A program made the translations under genes and the position numbers. From the NCBI GenBank assembly GCA_964017185.1, contig OZ024870.1, forward strand, positions 35,480,139-35,544,138: a DNA stretch of 64,000 bases. Direction: 5' to 3'. The notes beneath the pieces were generated by a model, which searched no databases, was not told where the DNA came from, and saw nothing but the letters and a program-made list of their open reading frames with translations. Of the stretch, positions 2,732 to 60,461 are shown piece by piece. Position 1 is the stretch's first letter. Each line of letters begins with the position of its first letter. The DNA comes from Rugalucina vietnamica (lineage: Eukaryota > Mollusca > Bivalvia > Lucinida > Lucinidae).

Positions 2732-3730
2732 TCACAAATATCCACAGTGATTGAAAATTTTGCGGGAGACAGAGGAAGTAATTTTCTCCATAAGTCCATC
2801 ACAAATGGCCATTTCTGTCATTTCGTCACTATACTTCTCATGTTCACATAGATACTGTTTTAGTTGTCCAAAACAATACTCACAAGTGTTCAGTTGTGGG
2901 TGATAGGGTGGTTGGAATATTAGTTTGATATTTCTTACAGCGAGCATGGTTGTTAGACGCTGTTCAGTTTGTCGACCATGATGAAAACCACAGTTATCCA
3001 TGATAACCACGTCTCCATGATTGAGCTTTGATATACCACAAGGAAATGTAACTTCTAAAGCATCTGTAAAAAATCGTAGCAATTCCTGACCATTTGAAGG
3101 ACCTTCAAGGATATTGAAATAATCTATTCCTGAAACACTATGTAATAAATTTACCGTGTAAGTTGCATTTGATGCATAGCGTTGGACTTCTATTGCCCTA
3201 GTCCCTTTATAAGAATCTCCAAATTTACGTTTTCCACTGGACTTTATGACGGAACACTCATCGAAAAAATGCATAGTATTGCCATCTATGTCGGATATAA
3301 GATCAAGATATGCATCATACTTTGCTTGATTTGTTGGTGTTTGTGATTCTTTGGGCACAGATGTTATTTTTTTGTGGGAATATCCAAGTTCAGACAAACC
3401 TTTATGTATGTAGGTTCTTGAAGGCACAGTTTCAGGATCACATACACTGTCTTCAAGTAATTTATGTCTGATTTCTTTAAGGAAAATTGATGGCTTCTGC
3501 AGTTTATAGAGTTCAATTGCTTTCAGTGTGTCCAAATTTAGCTTTTTGCTTTCTTTAGGTTTTCTGATGGATGGTAATGCTTTATAGGTCCCAGTTTGAA
3601 GGTAGAATCCTACAATGTTTGAAACAGATGGGTGGCTTATTGACAGAGTTTCTGCAATTTCTCGATAACTTTGTCCCTGCTCATATAGACGAACCACTTG
3701 ATGTCTGGTTAAGTCTGGTATAGTGTTCAT
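2732..3730 (-). CDS. Tc1/mariner-IS630-like DDE transposase, intact
   Basis: An uninterrupted 332-residue ORF. The N-terminus carries a helix-turn-helix of the Tc1/IS630 type (QGQSYREIAETL, residues about 18-29). The catalytic core has FFDE (D157), VIMDNCGFHH (D245) and HPQLNTCEYCF (E284), so 38 residues separate the second and third acidic residues, within the DDE_3 spread. The enzyme would cut and rejoin element ends in the nucleus. I found no convincing terminal repeats immediately around it. A short GGATATCC-rich TIR element lies about 100 bp upstream of its start, but a link is inference. Length and frame suggest a young copy. Alternative: a domesticated DDE protein. Confidence 0.85.
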   Translation of the reverse strand: MNTIPDLTRHQVVRLYEQGQSYREIAETLSISHPSVSNIVGFYLQTGTYKALPSIRKPKESKKLNLDTLKAIELYKLQKPSIFLKEIRHKLLEDSVCDPETVPSRTYIHKGLSELGYSHKKITSVPKESQTPTNQAKYDAYLDLISDIDGNTMHFFDECSVIKSSGKRKFGDSYKGTRAIEVQRYASNATYTVNLLHSVSGIDYFNILEGPSNGQELLRFFTDALEVTFPCGISKLNHGDVVIMDNCGFHHGRQTEQRLTTMLAVRNIKLIFQPPYHPQLNTCEYCFGQLKQYLCEHEKYSDEMTEMAICDGLMEKITSSVSRKIFNHCGYL

Positions 3731-16404: not shown

Positions 16405-18960
16405 AATGACATTATTTCACCAGGGGGTTTGGATGGGGGAGAAATTAGTCCCTTGAACGCACGAGTGAAGCGAACTTGGACACAAAGTCATCATTTCAGC
16501 AGAGGAGATACTTTGCTAGCTGAAGGTACATGTATCTGAAAAGCCAAAGAGTGTTGATTTCTACAACGCCTATTCTTTGGGATAAGGTCATCTGTTGGTA
16601 TTTTGGCTTTACCCTTTAGACCTTTGTATAGCAATATAAGTCTGTTATTCTTCCTCCTTTTCTTAAGAGATTCCCATTTCAGTTGACCTAAAATGCCAGT
16701 TATGCTGCCAGTTTCAAAAACATAATTTTCCGTCACAAACCTTGCCGCACGATTTTGGACCTTTTCCAGTTCTTCCTGGAGGCCATGAGTGTGAGGGTCC
16801 CAAACTGAGCTTCCATATTCCAAGACCGGCCGCATCAGTCCTTTATAAGCTGCTTCTTTCACATCTTGGGGACAAGAATACAAATTTCTCCTCAAGAATC
16901 CGAGAGTTCTGTTAGCCTTTGTACAAAAATTGGAAATATGAGTATTCCATTTCAAATCATTTGTGATAGTTACACCCAGGTATTTTATGCTTTCAACGTT
17001 TTCCAGTACAGTGCCCTCAAGGGTGTAAGTTAGCCTGTATCTTACTAGACCGTTTATTCGTCAGCTGCATCATGTTGCATTTGACGGGTTGAAATCTCAT
17101 TCCCCATTTCCTAGCCCAACTGCCTAAACGATCAATGTCTCTCTGCAGTTTCAATGTATCCTCTTCATTCTTGATTTCACGATAGCAAACACAATCATCA
17201 GCAAAGAGTCTTATTTCAGACTCAATGTCTGCTGTGATGTCATTTATATACAAGGAAAACAGCAAGGGGCCGAGAACGGTGCCCTGAGGGACACCCGACA
17301 CAACTGCAGCCCAATCCGATTTAATATCATTAACCATTACCCTTTGTTGTCTGAAACAAAAGAAAGCATTTATCCAATTCAGTGTTGTTTCACCTATTCC
17401 ATAGCTAAACAATTTGCTTTTAAGGAGTTCATGGGGAGGAGTATCGAAAGCCTTTTTCAAAATCAAGTATAAAAGTGTCGACCTGGCCTTTTTGTCTAAG
17501 ATTTTTGCCCAGTCATTTATCACTGTAGTCAACTGAGTTTCCTATGCCATTTCCTAAATGCGTGTTGCCTGTCCGACAAGAGTTCATGTTCATCAAGATG
17601 GGCCATAATATTTGAGCATACAATATGTTCAAGAAGCTTACAAGGAATGTATGTCAAAGAAGCAGGGCGGTAATTGCGGGCAAGTGACCTGTCGCCTTTC
17701 TTTAACAGGGGGCAAATATTAGCAAGAGACCATTCTTTAGGAATTTCACCTGTATCAATTGACTGCTGGAAGAGATGGGCGAACACCGGACCTAATTCCA
17801 TAGCCAGTTCCTTTAGGACTCTGGGATGAAGCTCATCAGGCCCTAAGGCTTTAGACGGGTTTAGACCTTTGAGAAGTTTGGTCACCCCTTCCTTTGTGAC
17901 CACAATATCATGCATGAATGGGGCAGATCTATCCATAAGAGGGACCTGTTTGTATTCACTTTTAGTGAAAACATCCGAGAACTGACCATTAAATTCTTCC
18001 GCCTTCTCAAATTCGGATTGCACAATTCCACTTCCATTTCTCTTTTTCAACGGGGGAATACCTTGGGTATCTATTTTCTGGCTGTTTATGTACCTGTAAA
18101 AATCTCTAGGATTAGCCTTAACATCTCCTACCAAGTTGTTCACGTAAAGATCATGCTGCTTCCTGATATCAGCTTTGATATCTTTCCTTAAGAATTCAAA
18201 TTTAGATCTAAATTTTGCACTACCAGTCTTTTTAGCTTTTGCATGAGTTGCATTTTTTCTGCGAATCTTCCTTCTTATTTCAGGTGTTATACAAGGGACA
18301 GAGGAAACTGAGCGACTAGTTTTTGAGGGGATATGTTTATCTGCCGATTCCTGAATAAACGATGTAATGAGATTGAAATTTTCCTGGACCGACCGAGTAT
18401 CGTTGAAGTATCTTTCCTTTGCAAATTTAAGTGTTTCTGTTCTCATAGATTCATAATCACCTTTCTGATAACGATACACTTTTCTCATAGGTTTCTTTAT
18501 AGGGGAAATAGCAATTTTCAATGTGCCAGAAACAATGTCATGATCACTGAACTTATCTGGGGAATGAATGTCTACAAACTGACCAGGAAGAGAGGTCAAA
18601 ATTAAGCCCAAAGTATTTCTTTCTCTGGTGGGGAAATTGTCTAATTGTTCCAAACCATGGTCATTCATGATATCTATCAAGCTCTGACCCTCCGTCTGAC
18701 TCAATGATGACCCAGATTTGCTGAGTCTGTCCGGCCATACAATATCTCTAAAGTTAAAATCGCCTTAAACGTGACTTAAGGGGGGTTTGTTGCCTTTATT
18801 AATATTTTTGATTTTGTCAAGCTGTTCTCTAAATAAATTGCCAAACTTTTCCAGGGAATTCAATAAGTCATTTCCATTGTCCGAAACTGGTAAATGACCA
18901 TCGACAGGTGGTCGATACAAAATTACAGTACAATAATCTGGCTTTCGTCGCCGGTTTTAA
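16405..18960 (-). pseudogene. LINE (jockey/CR1-like) with endonuclease and RT, broken frames
   Basis: From high to low coordinate the - strand shows the C-terminal part of the apurinic-type endonuclease (GDFNFRDIVWPD near 18730-18770; FSDHDIVSG at about 18540), a linker, then RT: NPSKALGPDELHPRVL, ARNYRPASLTYIPCKLLEHI, SGVPQGTVLGPLLFSLYIND and RLFADDC, then MRPVLEYGSSVWDP near the C-terminus. Frames break near 17530 and 16960, and a stop lies upstream of GDFN. The 5' part of the endonuclease is missing. It would have nicked target DNA and reverse-transcribed its own RNA; this copy is dead. Confidence 0.9.
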
Positions 18961-48360: not shown

Positions 48361-48626
48361 CACCATCATTGATTATTTTTCTCATCCATCACTTCAAACC
48401 ATTTTAACTCTGAATAGGCTTCATGTGCTGTTTTGGAAGCCATTTTGTTTTTACATGAAACAATATGCAAATTGATCAGTAAAAATAAAAAATAAAAAAA
48501 TTGTATATGCACTAACCTTTCAAAAACATTCAATCAGCATTTTGTTTTGTGCATAAAATTCTTAGCAAAATTAAATTTTGAGATTTTTATCAAAGCAGCA
48601 GATTACAATTACTCCTGTGAACTTCC

Positions 48627-49017
48627 AGTAGTAATGGGTGGCACTCTGGCGGGATTTTCTGAAAACTTCTGGCGGGATTTTTATGGCCACGCTTCAAATA
48701 AGCGTAGCGCTAGAAGCGTGGCCATAAAAATCCCGCCAGAAGTTTTCAGAAAATCCCGCCAGAGGTGCGCACCCTGGGTCTCAGTTTATGAACTAGCTAA
48801 GTTGCATGTAGGTAAGTATCCTTGAGTTAAGACAAGCCTGCACATCTGCTCATCTGCACATCAGCTCATCTGCACATTTGCACATCTACACATCTACACG
48901 CCTACACATCTTTAGAGACTATGAGATAACTGACATAGTCAAGTTTTTTCTGTAGGTAAGTTCCATTACGAAATTAAGAAAGGGCCTTTTTCCCCTCTTG
49001 TGTTCCTGGGTAGACTT
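48627..49017 (+). repeat. Left terminal inverted repeat of the Maverick-like element
   Basis: 391 bp, with internal hairpin 48644-48764 and a short CATCTGCACATCTGCT-type array (48836-48905). Frames running through it merely translate the repeat. Confidence 0.92.
48644..48764. repeat. Perfect hairpin inside left TIR
   Basis: Two 52-base arms (48644-48695, 48713-48764) pair perfectly across a 17-base loop that itself contains palindromic TAGCGCTA at its end. Arms include two copies of TCTGGCGGGATTTT. Confidence 0.95.
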
Positions 49018-49380
49018 CTCACGTTGTGACACTTGCTGGACTTGTCTGGGACAGTTGTGTGGGTATGTAGAAGTTTATGTTGCTATACAGCTGAATGCGT
49101 CTGAAGAGTGTGTTAGTCTTGTATCTCAAGACTTCAACTCTGTTAGAGTCATGACTCTATAGCTTGCTTAGAGGCTGTAAAGTGGTATGCGTTTCACTGT
49201 CTCAAAAGGCATAACTTTATAGCGTCTTCCTAATATATTGAGGCTTTTCAATGTTCTCGTATCTCGAGAACATTGATAAGCGTCAAAAACTCAGCTAGTT
49301 ATTGTCAAACTTAAAACCCTTTACTACTACCTCCTGAGAGGAGAAATGAAAACCCAAGACTAAATAACATTTTCAACATT

Positions 49381-49386
49381 TTTATT
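49381..49386 (-). terminator. Polyadenylation signal for the element's genes
   Basis: AATAAA on the - strand, 62 bases beyond the stop of the last ORF (49448). The 49018-49440 stretch otherwise holds no ORF. Confidence 0.55.
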
Positions 49387-49447
49387 TGTCCCGCTAACTA
49401 TGAATGCACGATGAAACAGAGGATTAGGACCGTCCCTCTGTTCTCGT

Positions 49448-50257
49448 TTACAAGCGTTTCCCCTGAATATAGCTACTCTTTGGTTTATTGTTAATACTGT
49501 TAATATGTGTTTTATGTGGCAACAATGATGTCTGTTCCTCGGCCACTTCGTAGCTTGGTGGGTCATAGTCATTCAGTTTCTTCTCAATCAAGAATTTTCG
49601 TTTCTTGATGGCATACAGTCTTGATTCGTCCTCTTCATAATCTTCTTCATCCCTCAATCGTTTAGCTGTTTCCTGTATTTTCTTGTTAACTGGATCTTTT
49701 CTAAGTGCAGCTGAGAGATCAGTCAGATACTTGTAGCGGGATACGAACTCTGACAGATACTTTGGTTTTAGTTCATCATATGCTATCTCTTCAGCCTCTT
49801 GTACGTCTTTGCCAGGATTTTCATGCAGCGCCTTTTCAACCGTTTCGTTGAAAATGTCTTGCATCTTATCTGTCGTTATGTTCATCAAAACATCCCATGG
49901 TTTTATTTTCTGAGGTTCCTCCTCCTCCTCCTCATCATCATCAATATCATCCTCATCCTCATCATTATCTTCTTCTTCATCATCATCATCTTCTTCTTCA
50001 TCTTCTTCTTCCTCATCTTCCTCACTTTCTTCAGTTTCATCCTCTTCTTCCTCATCGACTTCTACATCTTCAAGATCAGGTTTTCTGAAGATGTCTTTTC
50101 CATCGACCAGTGATCTTCTTTCAGACATAACACTTTCTTCATCACTGTCTAACATGTTAACCTCAGCACCTCTGCAGATACCACTGTCCTTGTGTCTTCT
50201 CAAATTGAATGATCTGGCAAATACTCGATCGCACTGATGGCACTGATATCGACCCAT
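49448..50257 (-). CDS. Virus-like gene 3: zinc-finger, acidic protein with PPSY motif
   Basis: 269 residues. The N-terminus has one finger, CHQCDRVFARSFNLRRH followed by a Cys (residues 6-28), C2HC by spacing. Residues about 60-115 are almost entirely D/E. A charged helical region follows (PWDVLMNITTDKMQDIFNE), then KKRKF and DPPSYEV near residue 235. PPxY motifs bind WW-domain ligases and occur in some viral structural proteins; relevance here is inference. It is the last of three same-strand genes, 47 bases after gene 2, with a TATA box at 50302-50309. I know no named homologue. Confidence 0.8.
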   Translation of the reverse strand: MGRYQCHQCDRVFARSFNLRRHKDSGICRGAEVNMLDSDEESVMSERRSLVDGKDIFRKPDLEDVEVDEEEEDETEESEEDEEEEDEEEDDDDEEEDNDEDEDDIDDDEEEEEEPQKIKPWDVLMNITTDKMQDIFNETVEKALHENPGKDVQEAEEIAYDELKPKYLSEFVSRYKYLTDLSAALRKDPVNKKIQETAKRLRDEEDYEEDESRLYAIKKRKFLIEKKLNDYDPPSYEVAEEQTSLLPHKTHINSINNKPKSSYIQGKRL

Positions 50258-50301
50258 AGCTGGTTAGTCGAAGAATACTGAGATTCATCCTGAGTCTGTC
50301 T

Positions 50302-50309
50302 CTTTTATA
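50302..50309 (-). promoter_or_regulatory. TATA box of gene 3
   Basis: TATAAAAG on the - strand, 45 bases before the ATG at 50257, overlapping the end of gene 2 (stop at 50305). Confidence 0.7.
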
Positions 50310-50619
50310 CCATCGCTGGAGTTGGTTTTGTTCTAGTTCTTCTCAGATTTGGTTTCTTTGTAATCCTCTGACGTTTAGCTGTTGATGTCTTCTTTTTCTC
50401 TGACAGTTCTTTTAACAGTTCAGCCCGACACACTCTGCAATACTTCGAAGGTCTGCCCTCTCTAAGCCTTTTACTCAAAGCTGTATTCAACCTTTTCATA
50501 AGGTTTCTGATCTGTGCATAACTTGCATGAGATCCACTCGGTTTCTGTGTCACAGGTGTTTTCTTAGATTCTTCCATAGCCTTGCAGGATTGTTTTGTCT
50601 GTTTTTCTAAAGAAGTCAT
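50305..50619 (-). CDS. Virus-like gene 2: small basic protein
   Basis: 104 residues, rich in Lys/Arg, especially the last 35 (KKKTSTAKRQRITKKPNLRR). Centre YAQIRNLMKRLNTALSKRLR is probably helical, followed by CRVC. Size and charge fit a DNA-binding or core-packaging protein, but no homologue is recognised. It lies 56 bases after gene 1 and has its own TATA box. The uninterrupted frame and clean spacing to both neighbours support a real gene. Confidence 0.75.
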   Translation of the reverse strand: MTSLEKQTKQSCKAMEESKKTPVTQKPSGSHASYAQIRNLMKRLNTALSKRLREGRPSKYCRVCRAELLKELSEKKKTSTAKRQRITKKPNLRRTRTKPTPAMV

Positions 50620-50667
50620 CTCTTAAGCGTTTTGTACAAAACTGATAATTAACAAACTCTTAGATTG

Positions 50668-50675
50668 TATTTATA
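50668..50675 (-). promoter_or_regulatory. TATA box of gene 2
   Basis: TATAAATA on the - strand immediately after the stop codon of gene 1, 49 bases before the ATG at 50619. Confidence 0.7.
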
Positions 50676-51518
50676 CTAGTTTTTCTTTCTACGAAAGTGT
50701 AATTTTAAAATCGTTTTGCCTGTTACAAAAGGAACAATCATACCATTTTCTGTTTTTAATGTAATGTGCACTTGGTCTACAATAGATTTTGAAACAGAAA
50801 CATAGTGCAGAGTTTTAAATTCTTTATAGAAGAAATATGAATCTGATTTACTTTGAAATGGAACAACTCGTAAAATAGGTGCTACAGTATCACCAATAAA
50901 AGTGAAACTTGCAATGTCAGAATAAACATAGAAGTTGCTAAAATTGTGATTCAACTTTGCATTGAACTTAAACACATTTTGCTCATTACCTATAGGCTTT
51001 TCGACAAATGATGAATCTAATCCTAAGATTTGAGCAAATGGTTTTGGGAATAAAAGCCTAACCAGCCTTTCGTTTTGGGCTGATATTTTGAAACGTTGAC
51101 TCAAATGATCATATGTCATAGTAATGTGAGCATTGAATTTTTTCAGTATGCCTTTTTCAAAGTTGTCAATGGAGTTCTGCATTTCTTCAGCTAGATATTC
51201 ATGTGACTCATAATTTCCAGTTGGAATTGTTAATTTGAAGTTATAGCAGCCATTTTTACTGCTACATATGTCTGTGATGTTTTGATTTCCAACTCTGCGT
51301 AAACTGGATTGGTCTAGGAAAGTCAAAAAGAAATAGTTGTTTTCTTCTGTTATATTGAGAACTTCAGATGGTGTTGCAATTTCAACCAAGGCAACCTCCC
51401 AGCTTTCCACGTCAATTTTAATAGGATGATCCAATCTTACAGTAAATTCAGACTGTTTATTTGATGGGAACATGTTCATAGAACTGTCACTTAGTAATGT
51501 AATGTAAAAATCCTTCAT
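50676..51518 (-). CDS. Virus-like gene 1: Maverick-associated conserved protein, candidate minor capsid
   Basis: 280 residues, intact. It opens MKDFYITLLSDSSMNMFPSN, has SWEVALVEIATPSEVLNI (residues about 39-56), a central LVRLLFPKPFAQILGLD, then FYVYSDIASFTFIGDT, APILRVVPF and ends in KTILKLHFRRKK. This pattern (FYxTLPS start, WEVxL, YVYSDI...GDT.APxLR, LHFRR end) I recall from uncharacterised proteins in animal Maverick clusters. Mostly beta-rich, about the size of a single jelly-roll minor capsid (penton) protein; that role is inference. It is first in the array and nearest the right TIR. Confidence 0.8.
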   Translation of the reverse strand: MKDFYITLLSDSSMNMFPSNKQSEFTVRLDHPIKIDVESWEVALVEIATPSEVLNITEENNYFFLTFLDQSSLRRVGNQNITDICSSKNGCYNFKLTIPTGNYESHEYLAEEMQNSIDNFEKGILKKFNAHITMTYDHLSQRFKISAQNERLVRLLFPKPFAQILGLDSSFVEKPIGNEQNVFKFNAKLNHNFSNFYVYSDIASFTFIGDTVAPILRVVPFQSKSDSYFFYKEFKTLHYVSVSKSIVDQVHITLKTENGMIVPFVTGKTILKLHFRRKKN

Positions 51519-51590
51519 GTCTGAAGAAGTACTGAATGTGTCAGTATTGAGTGAATGAATAATTCAGCTCTTGAAAATACTATCAGTTTA

Positions 51591-51597
51591 ATTTATA
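51591..51597 (-). promoter_or_regulatory. TATA box of gene 1
   Basis: TATAAAT on the - strand, 73 bases before the ATG at 51518, between the gene and the right TIR. The 51600-52085 stretch beyond it is AT-rich; one 71-codon + strand frame there has no recognisable feature. Confidence 0.65.
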
Positions 51598-52085
51598 ATG
51601 TGAAACACAAACTATTTAAATGCAAAACCTTTTGTCGATTTCCATTCATGCGTCGTTTTCAGAAAATTATCTACTTTCAGTTTTAGAATTTTCTGAAAAT
51701 GATAACCTACTTTTCTCAGAAAAACCAATACCAATAGTTCCCCTTGAACGTACAAATATATCAACTATGAAATTAACAAAACTTGAATTTTCTGTAAATA
51801 TTCAAGCAAAAATGTGTTTACTTATTTCTTTTTAATTAGAAAATGTGATATTTAAGTAAATTGTATTACATTCAATAAAATAATTGCAACACTTTTCTTA
51901 CTTTTGATATGAGAATGGATTTCCATATGCAAATTTCCATTCACAAATTTTAATCATCTATGAAAACTTCAGTTATATAAAGTTATAATGACCTATGCTT
52001 ATCTGTGAATAATAATAAAACAAATAGGCATTTTACTTGAAGTTTCTATGTTTGTGTAGATGTGGATACTAATGCAAAATCAAAT

Positions 52086-52532
52086 AAGTCTACCCAGGAA
52101 CACAAGAGGGGAAAAAGGCCCTTTCTTAATTTCGTAATGGAACTTACCTACAGAAAAAACTTGACTATGTCAGTTATCTCGTAGTCTCTAAAGATGTGTA
52201 GGCGTGTAGATGTGCAAATGTGCAGATGTGCAGATGAGCAGATGTGCAGATGAGCAGATGTGCAGATGAGCCGATGTGCAGATGAGCAGATGTGCAGATT
52301 AGCAGATGAGCAGATGTGCAGGCTTGTCTTAACTCAAGGATACTTACCTACATGCAACTTAGCTAGTTCATAAACTGAGACCCAGGGTGCGCACCTCTGG
52401 CGGGATTTTCTGAAAACTTCTGGCGGGATTTTTATGGCCACGCTTCTAGCGCTACGCTTATTTGAAGCGTGGCCATAAAAATCCCGCCAGAAGTTTTCAG
52501 AAAATCCCGCCAGAGTGCCACCCATTACTACT
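52086..52532 (-). repeat. Right terminal inverted repeat of the Maverick-like element
   Basis: 447 bp, complement of the left TIR with an expanded GTGCAGATGAGCAGAT array (52205-52320). Confidence 0.92.
52395..52515. repeat. Perfect hairpin inside right TIR
   Basis: Arms 52395-52446 and 52464-52515, identical in stem to the left hairpin; the loop is its complement, as expected for an inverted copy. Confidence 0.95.
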
Positions 52533-52786
52533 ACTTCCTGAAATTAACATCTACTAGTTTATTTTTTGTCACTGACAGTTAACAGCTGGCTTATCATTTC
52601 CTTATATGGAAGTACACATGAAGATGTACATTTCTATTGGCTAAACACAGAAATGATTGGCATTTTGAGACAGCTAAAATTTACAACTACTTGTACTGTG
52701 ACAGAAATATCTCGGACAGCCACACAAAGGGATATGCTTGTCTGATGGGTGAGAAACTATGCTAGAATTGAATGCCCGTAAATTAT

Positions 52787-59796: not shown

Positions 59797-60461
59797 TTAA
59801 ATTTGTTCATCTTCTGAGCCAAATAAGCCCAATTTCTCATCTTTTGTCCTTTTAGCCTTGCCTCTCAGAATAGCCTCTTTGAACAAACTCAAGTAATATA
59901 ACTGTGCATCTTTGGAGTCATCATTGCCCGGGATAGGATAGGTGATCAAACGAGGGTCTGTGTTAGAGTCACATATTCCAATAGTTGGTATTAGTAACTT
60001 TGCATGATCAATTACACCCCTATGTTGCCTGAACGCATTGTTCAGTGTACAGAAAAAGATTCCTAAATCTGGTAACCTGGTCATTGTACCAAATGTTTTT
60101 GTCGAATCGGTGTAAAGACCACCCTTCCAGTAGCGGCAGTGGGCATATTCTCCAACCTCCTTGGCACTTCGTTCTACCCACGGCATCATTTGTTTGTTCC
60201 TACTGATAAACAGAATAATGCCCTTTTGGTAAGCAATATGAGCAGTAAAGTTCAGCGCATCTTGGAAGAGTGGTAAAGTTTGTTCTAGGTCTATGATATC
60301 AGAACCTAGCCGGGAACCAAAGAGGTACGGGGTCATGTATTTGTTTCGACAGCCGTGCGTGTGACCAAGATGAACATTATGTCTGAAGAGATCGTCCAGT
60401 GTGACCAGTTCCCGTACGTTGAAGTAGTCATGATGCTGGAGCGGATCTGTAGCATCCATTT
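59797..60461 (-). CDS. MRPS2: Mitochondrial ribosomal protein S2 (uS2m), last exon
   Basis: uS2m is a component of the mitochondrial small ribosomal subunit. The exon follows acceptor CTGTTTCAG on the - strand and encodes most of the mature domain: DYFNVRELVTLDDLF, HLGHTHGCRNKYMTPYLFGS, DIIDLEQTLPLFQDALNFTA, IAYQKGIILFISRNKQ, RLPDLGIFF and ITYPIPGNDDS, all typical of the S2 family. The first Met inside the exon (60459) is internal, because the previous exon joins in frame as ...KVE-E-MDATDP. It ends with a stop at 59797. No 3' signal was pinned down. Confidence 0.95.

What the first reader, a model, noticed from the sequence alone, without database searches (positions are those of the whole stretch)
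48627..52532. A streamlined 3.9-kb Maverick/Polinton-like element with three intact genes
The boundaries are exact: AGT...ACT ends, 6-bp duplication ACTTCC, TIRs of 391 and 447 bp. Yet it carries only three genes on one strand (280, 104 and 269 codons, gaps of 56 and 47 bases), all open. Full-length Mavericks are usually 15-20 kb with polymerase B and integrase. Keeping a candidate minor-capsid-like gene, a basic protein and a zinc-finger acidic protein while lacking replication genes would be unusual for a dead deletion derivative, where open frames decay. It may be a packaged satellite dependent on a larger relative.
Basis: partly seen in the sequence, partly recalled or inferred. Interest (0 to 1): 0.93.

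Follow-up and report, generated by a model that had tools for sequence, protein, structure and literature searches.

The report
Polinton satellite with swappable terminal hairpins
A 3.9-kb mobile element in an animal genome carries its own virus vertex-protein gene plus two others, shares its ends with a complete 18.8-kb Polinton virus in the same genome, and appears to trade its hairpin-shaped tips with it, which is what a long-lived satellite of that virus would look like.

Summary
In detail: ends, 6-bp duplication, TIRs and three open genes are as described. ORF1 is a Polinton penton by fold. The host genome (1.09 Gb) holds many copies, and complete Polintons (polymerase B, integrase, ATPase, penton; one is 18,814 bp) with the same terminal block. 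The small element is no recent deletion of these: the pentons are about 51% identical and fall into separate groups, and ORF2 and ORF3 were not found in the helper pieces read. Of 29 other copies examined (the best penton matches), 22 keep all three genes; variants shared between copies suggest purifying selection on ORF1, less surely on ORF2; it is not shown for ORF3. New: each element examined ends in a long palindrome whose stem varies between copies but agrees at both ends of one copy. Twenty stem types were seen, ten in both satellites and helpers; this element's hairpin is identical over 120 nt to one helper's. Three copies carry chimeric hairpins at both ends, and inverted dimers inserted as units point to copying around the hairpin. 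So satellite and helper shared one replicating pool. Helper dependence is well supported, packaging inferred. My literature searches found no such element.

The parts
48621..48626 (.). target site duplication ACTTCC, left
   Evidence: read directly
52533..52538 (.). target site duplication ACTTCC, right
   Evidence: read directly
48627..49017 (+). left terminal inverted repeat, 391 bp
52086..52532 (-). right terminal inverted repeat, 447 bp
48636..48774 (+). left terminal hairpin; 52-nt perfect arms 48644-48695 / 48713-48764 around 17 nt; the stem type varies between copies and is shared with helpers
52385..52523 (-). right terminal hairpin, same sequence as the left one
48763..48834 (+). 72-bp TIR block identical to a helper's end (L057:48-119)
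52325..52396 (-). the same 72-bp block in the right TIR
48838..48911 (+). 8-bp tandem array in the left TIR
52192..52321 (-). 8-bp tandem array in the right TIR, 56 bp longer
50676..51518 (-). [quoted passage not shown]
   Evidence: AlphaFold2 model pLDDT 87; mavirus penton 6g41 Foldseek E 1.3e-10, adenovirus penton bases, Sputnik; Tetraselmis viridis virus S1 protein E 2.5e-14
50305..50619 (-). ORF2, 104 aa, pI 10.9, basic, with a CxxC motif; fold not predicted
   Evidence: 28 homologs
49448..50257 (-). ORF3, 269 aa: C2H2 finger, acidic stretch, helical domain (about 120-229), tail with PPSY
   Evidence: Pfam zf-C2H2 4.8e-05, just under its cut-off; 85 homologs; model; PPxY in 40 of the 51 homologs (of 85) that keep KKRKFL
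51592..51597 (-). TATA box of ORF1 (-79)
50670..50675 (-). TATA box of ORF2 (-56)
50304..50309 (-). TATA box of ORF3 (-52)
49381..49386 (-). AATAAA 62 bases after the ORF3 stop
49031..49453 (-). 3' region 89% identical to the helper's region after its protease gene
   Evidence: 454 columns, L052:6748-7201

Best explanation
This is a gene-carrying satellite of a Polinton. It has no polymerase, integrase, packaging ATPase, protease or major capsid gene, and is copied and inserted in trans by complete Polintons of the kind found in the same genome, whose machinery recognises the terminal block that both share. During replication the two kinds of genome lie in one pool. Their outermost ~200 bp (tip, hairpin, inner block) recombine, sometimes inside the hairpin loop; the new end is then copied onto the other end, presumably when the two TIRs of a displaced single strand anneal; and the molecule integrates with a 6-bp duplication. 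Now and then an end folds back on its hairpin and is copied round, which makes inverted dimers. The satellite keeps its own penton and two further proteins because they act mainly for it, most likely by changing the vertices or size of helper-built capsids and by condensing or choosing its DNA. Shown: shared ends, a shared hairpin pool, chimeric and homogenised ends, TSDs, inverted dimers inserted as units, multi-copy intact genes, constraint on ORF1. Inferred: mobilisation in trans by this helper, packaging, and the roles of the three proteins.
For: 139 penton matches in the genome, of which 34 at 45-52% identity (32 full-length, all open) and 105 of this family (my count). Helper gene set read in one copy: PolB 4.6e-48, rve 6.5e-13 + chromo, Pox_A32-like ATPase 3e-05, weak Peptidase_C5 0.0023. 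Another helper runs 18,814 bp between 228-bp TIRs that are 100% identical. 72 bp of TIR identical to a helper. Hairpin pool: 59 tips, 4 set aside, 55 in 20 stem types, 10 types in both kinds, kinds spread as at random (36 cross pairs, 37.6 expected); exact matches of 117-154 nt between 6 satellites and 10 helper ends, the window's hairpin matching helper L079 over 120 nt. Gene distance does not predict tip distance (23 copies, rho -0.15, p 0.88; L005 and the window 0.06% against 32%). Ends alike within an element (0.88-1.0, 11 elements), 0.68 on average between elements. Chimeric hairpins at both ends in 3 copies. Matching 6-bp TSDs in 8 of 9 other copies whose two ends were both resolved, of 20 looked at. 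Inverted dimers with TSDs. Intact: ORF1 26, ORF2 27, ORF3 25 of 29. Shared variants: N/S relative to neutral 0.39 (p 0.027) in ORF1 and 0.25 (p 0.019) in ORF2.
Against: No virion, transcript or extrachromosomal DNA was examined. With one copy of each inverted dimer dropped, ORF2 is no longer significant (0.29, p 0.060) while ORF1 is (0.29, p 0.008); the contrast between shared and single variants is weak (Fisher 0.20 and 0.036 for ORF1 and ORF2 with 30 copies, 0.054 and 0.12 with 28), and ORF3 shared variants are not significantly constrained (0.79 and 0.66). The 30 copies were the best penton matches, which favours intact ORF1. The helper has its own penton, so the use of a second is unexplained. 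Support for the small-element penton group is moderate (89/75, midpoint root). Many rows are broken or truncated. The helper's capsid gene is named by position and recalled likeness only (no match).
Confidence: 0.62

Rival explanations
1. It is mobilised by the Polinton as above, but its proteins do not serve its own packaging: the penton is a decoy that spoils helper capsids (a defective-interfering element, or one kept because it protects the host).
For: The penton is about 51% identical to the helper's, so mixed vertices are conceivable; constraint on ORF1 fits either use.
Against: Benefit to the host would not by itself explain the many copies, nor why ORF2 and ORF3 travel with the penton.
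Confidence: 0.17
2. It is an ordinary non-autonomous deletion derivative; the open frames are kept only because copies are young.
For: Longest matching stretches of other copies are 91-98% identical to the element, many fragments and stop-bearing copies exist, and the selection tests rest on few variants.
Against: The penton differs from the helper's by about half its residues and falls in another group; ORF2 and ORF3 are not in the helper pieces read; 5' non-coding DNA is more diverged than each ORF in 29 of 29 copies, although the 3' part exceeds ORF3 in only 14 of 25.
Confidence: 0.08
3. It is one half of a split genome: some helpers lack a working penton and depend on the small element, so the dependence is mutual.
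For: Some adintoviruses lack a detectable Penton and some have two (PMC11071296, passages).
Against: All 32 full-length helper-type pentons listed for this genome are open; a helper without a penton would however not appear in that search.
Confidence: 0.06
4. The shared hairpins arise by gene conversion among integrated chromosomal copies, not in a replicating pool.
For: Many similar dispersed copies are present.
Against: Conversion acts on one end at a time, yet both ends agree; three copies carry the same chimera at both ends, with matching TSDs in two and one base off in the third.
Confidence: 0.07

Closest known systems
Polinton / Maverick (polintovirus)
   Same: AGT...ACT ends, 6-bp TSD, long TIRs, penton (PX) gene; terminal block shared with complete Polintons in the same genome
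   Different: no PolB, integrase, ATPase, protease or major capsid gene; 3.9 kb; two genes not found in the helper pieces read
Tlr elements of Tetrahymena
   Same: once proposed as non-autonomous derivatives of Polintons (mentioned in PMC4028283, passage)
   Different: Tlr carry integrase, ATPase, major capsid and penton genes, and that paper argues against the proposal
Phage satellites such as P4 and PICIs (recalled, no call)
   Same: small, rely on a helper's structural genes, bring capsid-modifying genes of their own
   Different: eukaryotic, protein-primed helper with retroviral-type integrase; capsid effect not shown here
Virophages (e.g. mavirus)
   Same: penton fold; helper-dependent life style (inferred here)
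   Different: [quoted passage not shown] their helper is a giant virus
Adintoviruses
   Same: animal Polinton-like viruses with penton genes of variable number (PMC11071296, passages)
   Different: PolB and integrase typical; no penton-only 3.9-kb member in the passages seen
MITEs and other non-autonomous DNA transposons
   Same: use the ends of an autonomous partner
   Different: MITEs carry no genes; here three genes are kept
AAV / parvovirus terminal hairpins (recalled; AAV2 rolling-hairpin paper PMC11575299 seen as listing only)
   Same: palindromic termini on a small helper-dependent genome; inverted dimers joined at a hairpin
   Different: here the hairpin lies 9 bp inside the end of an element whose helper has a protein-primed type of polymerase; no Rep gene

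Membership tests
Polinton / Maverick | TIRs of several hundred bp and 5-6 bp TSD | tested here: met
   features as given in PMC12220804 (passages)
Polinton / Maverick | protein-primed PolB and RVE integrase | tested here: not met
   between the TIRs the coding strand has three ORFs of 100 aa or more; none matches PolB or rve
Polinton / Maverick | penton (PX) gene | tested here: met
   PX = penton in PMC4028283 (passages)
Polinton / Maverick | double jelly-roll major capsid, ATPase, protease | tested here: not met
   absent from the element
Non-autonomous partner (satellite) of a Polinton | shares ends with an autonomous element in the same genome | tested here: met
Non-autonomous partner (satellite) of a Polinton | depends on the helper for replication and insertion | not testable with these tools
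   inferred from missing genes and the shared terminal pool
Virus satellite in the strict sense | is encapsidated | not testable with these tools
   no virion data
Virophage | own MCP, ATPase and protease | tested here: not met
MITE | no coding capacity | tested here: not met
   three multi-copy, mostly intact genes

The most novel reading that the evidence does not exclude
An ancient lineage of animal-virus satellites that encode their own capsid vertex and travel in Polinton particles, with a shared, freely exchanged set of terminal hairpin types that works like an identity tag: satellite and helper draw from the same set, and a tag is rewritten on both ends of a genome before it integrates.
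Probability: 0.45. Interest if true: 0.93.

Novelty: new variant of a known kind. Interest (0 to 1): 0.86.

Why it matters
Whether animal Polintons are live viruses is argued mainly from gene content. A satellite lineage that kept a penton and swapped termini with complete Polintons is indirect evidence that the complete ones replicated as free linear genomes in shared cells, repeatedly. The hairpin types give a natural marker of which genomes met; the chimeric hairpins point to the loop as an exchange site; the inverted dimers show that ends are copied round. If the small element is packaged, it is a capsid-gene-bearing satellite of an endogenous animal virus, and its penton asks directly whether vertices set capsid size.
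Full report
OBSERVATION. Three genes of 280, 104 and 269 codons lie on the minus strand, 56 and 47 bases apart. Each has a TATA box 79, 56 or 52 bases before its start codon; shuffling the three upstream stretches gave all three at a rate of 0.0002. An AATAAA lies 62 bases after the last stop.

THE TERMINAL HAIRPIN. Each TIR holds a palindrome that begins 9 bases from the end: 52-nt perfect arms around 17 nt, extended by near-complementary flanks (48636-48774), folding at -78 kcal/mol against a mean of -20 for 200 shuffles. This was not in the finding.

COPIES. The host genome is 1.09 Gb in 47 contigs, unnamed; a bivalve is my guess, only because one relative lies on a MAG contig of a clam symbiont (P0018). 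One search was answered: 139 penton matches, a lower bound. By my count 34 have 45-52% identity (32 full-length, all without stops) and 105 belong to this family; of these 105 rows, 59 span at least 275 of 280 residues, and 37 of the 59 have no stop. I examined L003-L031, the 29 best copies other than the window's own: ORF1 is open (ATG, 278 residues or more) in 26, ORF2 in 27, ORF3 (261-290 residues) in 25, all three in 22 (counts mine). In the fetched set the commonest stop is codon 279, which removes two residues. L013/L014 and L027/L031 proved to be the halves of two inverted dimers (below), so the 29 copies are 27 insertions.

SELECTION. Against the window, 5' non-coding DNA differs by 5.5% on average, ORF1 by 0.9%, ORF2 1.4%, ORF3 2.5% (29 copies), 3' non-coding 2.7% (25 copies). 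The 5' part exceeds each ORF in 29 of 29 copies; the 3' part exceeds ORF1 in 23, ORF2 in 21 and ORF3 in only 14 of 25. With transitions weighted (1.94) and 30 copies, variants shared by two or more copies have N/S relative to neutral of 0.39 (12 N, 10 S, p 0.027) for ORF1, 0.25 (5, 7, p 0.019) for ORF2 and 0.79 (42, 16, p 0.25) for ORF3; singletons give 0.81, 1.15 and 0.67 (p 0.22, 0.70, 0.034). Without L014 and L031 the shared values are 0.29 (p 0.008), 0.29 (p 0.060) and 0.66 (p 0.12), and the shared-against-singleton contrast is not significant (Fisher 0.054, 0.12, 0.85). So constraint during propagation is supported for ORF1, suggested for ORF2 and not shown for ORF3. The copies were chosen by penton score, which biases ORF1.

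THE HELPER. Pieces of one 51%-type copy hold PolB (1,085 aa, Pfam 4.6e-48), an ATPase (Pox_A32 3e-05), an integrase with chromodomain (6.5e-13), a penton, a small basic protein, a 434-aa capsid candidate (by position and recalled likeness; no match) and an adenain-like protease (0.0023, under the cut-off). This copy (L052) is 97.6-99.4% identical to three others over the stretches compared; L055, the other one whose ORFs I listed, has an interrupted reading frame before the integrase. Another copy is bounded by 228-bp TIRs identical to each other, 18,814 bp from end to end, with a matching 6-bp duplication (TACCTG / CAGGTA, read). ORF2 and ORF3 gave no significant match in the helper pieces (best E 0.024 and 0.19). 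The small element shares with the helper the TIR block (72 bp, 100% in one copy) and 454 columns at 89% in the 3' region, while its penton is only about 51% identical.

AGE OF THE SPLIT. In a tree of 35 pentons (midpoint root) the window's falls with 15 others in one group (support 89/75) and the helper's with 15 others in a second (90/95). Matching contig lengths between the homolog lists (a proxy, compared by hand) gave 10 contigs with both a penton and an ORF3 relative; all ten pentons have 62-82% identity to ORF1. As only 24 of the 111 penton rows are at 55% or below, two would be expected among ten by chance, so this is weak taken alone; but one such contig is only 6,919 bp long. Read-through products join ORF2 and ORF3 in other lineages (P0142, P0216, P0218). 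The three-gene set is therefore probably old and present in several lineages.

HAIRPIN POOL. In other copies the hairpin sits at the same place but has another stem sequence, with a loop that is alike in most. Within an element the two ends agree (0.88-1.0 over the whole tip, 11 elements); between elements the mean from base 19 on is 0.68 (253 pairs). Arms pair with their own partner at 0.93 on average, with another copy's at 0.72 (13 of 506 swaps reach the own mean), shuffled 0.62. Gene distance does not predict tip distance (23 copies, rho -0.15, p 0.88); L005 and the window differ by 0.06% in ORF1 and ORF2 but by 32% in the tip. With 20 further helper ends (19 gave a tip) and 20 further satellite ends (13 gave a tip), 59 tips (36 satellite, 23 helper) were compared: four were set aside for unequal arms and 55 fell into 20 stem types. 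Ten types contain both kinds, and the kinds are spread over types as at random (36 cross pairs, 37.6 expected). Exact matches of 117-154 nt link 6 satellites with 10 helper ends; the window's hairpin equals that of helper L079 over 120 nt. Two of the helper ends (L062, L063) belong to one insertion. Inner-block indel variants occur in both kinds too, and the kinds part company after GAGTTAAGACA in the sequences listed, so the exchanged unit is about the outer 200 bp.

CHIMERAS. Three satellites (L086, L088, L096) have a left arm of one type and a right arm of another, joined in the loop. Their other ends, fetched separately (L102-L104), carry the same chimera (identical in one, with repeat-number and a few base differences in two); the flanking 6-mers match in two and differ by one base in the third. 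Assembly error or conversion of one end after insertion does not explain this; exchange before insertion followed by copying of one end onto the other does. Annealing of the TIRs of a displaced strand (panhandle) is the obvious route, known for adenovirus (a 1988 title seen in a reference list; otherwise recalled).

INVERTED DIMERS. Found on rechecking. At C5:69442333-69450557 (8,225 bp) two satellites stand head to head and share one hairpin, with the inner flank GTGCGCACCCTGGGTCTC on both sides and no terminal tip between them. The two outer ends carry identical hairpins of the window's type (127 nt), the junction hairpin is of another type, and the 6-mers outside match (GTCAGA / TCTGAC), so the dimer was inserted as a unit. 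At C3:78.795 Mb two satellites stand tail to tail: 1 kb across the junction is 98.9% identical to its own reverse complement, with 50 nt between the inner flanks; its outer duplication could not be tested. At C8:29445295-29463308 an 18,014-bp insertion of helper type has two right ends with identical tips, pentons facing apart about 4.6 kb from each end, a centre that is 97% self-complementary over 802 bp at exactly its midpoint, and a 6-bp duplication (GAAGGT / ACCTTC); the rest of its inside was not read. These are what copying round a folded-back end would leave. They show linear, end-copied forms before insertion; that the copy-back helper is close to normal genome length may mean a size limit, but is one case.

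CONCLUSION. Best reading: a helper-dependent satellite that has kept a penton and two partner genes and shares a replicating pool with complete Polintons. Mobilisation in trans is inferred from missing genes plus shared, exchanged ends. Packaging is a further inference: a constrained penton has little other use. Why a satellite should bring a vertex protein when the helper has one is open; control of capsid size or of DNA choice is my favoured answer.

NOVELTY. Phrase searches for non-autonomous or satellite Polintons gave nothing, and broader searches listed no such element. Bivalve transposon work finds Mavericks in all mollusc genomes analysed (PMC10294476, passages). An animal-virus survey notes adintoviruses without or with two pentons (PMC11071296, passages). 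An older proposal took Tlr elements for non-autonomous Polinton derivatives (PMC4028283, passage). I rate this a new variant of a known kind; the hairpin pool may deserve more.

Noticed in passing
48807-48817 +, 48951-48961 +, 52142-52152 -, 52342-52352 -: TGTAGGTAAGT, a 5' splice-donor-like motif, twice in each TIR pointing inward (0.01 expected in the whole window); the outer one lies in the block shared with the helper. A spliced leader from the TIR is conceivable.
   Followed up: no
48638-48644 and the matching place in all tips: A 7-mer just inside AGTAGTAATGG varies between copies (27 versions over 59 tips) and is not tied to the stem type.
   Followed up: partly
49238-49286: A short second palindrome (22-nt arms, 91%) in the 3' region; the helper has a similar one near L052:6915-6963.
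   Followed up: no
L108 and G000:C8:29445295-29463308: A copy-back helper insertion of 18,014 bp, two right halves joined head to head, with a 6-bp duplication.
   Followed up: partly
L001:159-1031: A Polinton-type penton on a 4.2-kb contig of a Rhodospirillales MAG (25% identity), probably eukaryotic contamination of the bin.
   Followed up: no
2732-3730 -: Open frame of a mariner/Tc1-like transposase (DDE_3, 332 aa).
   Followed up: no
17017-18704 -: A reverse transcriptase frame (2.1e-21) and a weakly endonuclease-like one (0.013), probably of a non-LTR element.
   Followed up: no
59797-60459 -: Ribosomal protein S2 match in one open frame of 220 aa; exon or retrocopy not resolved.
   Followed up: no
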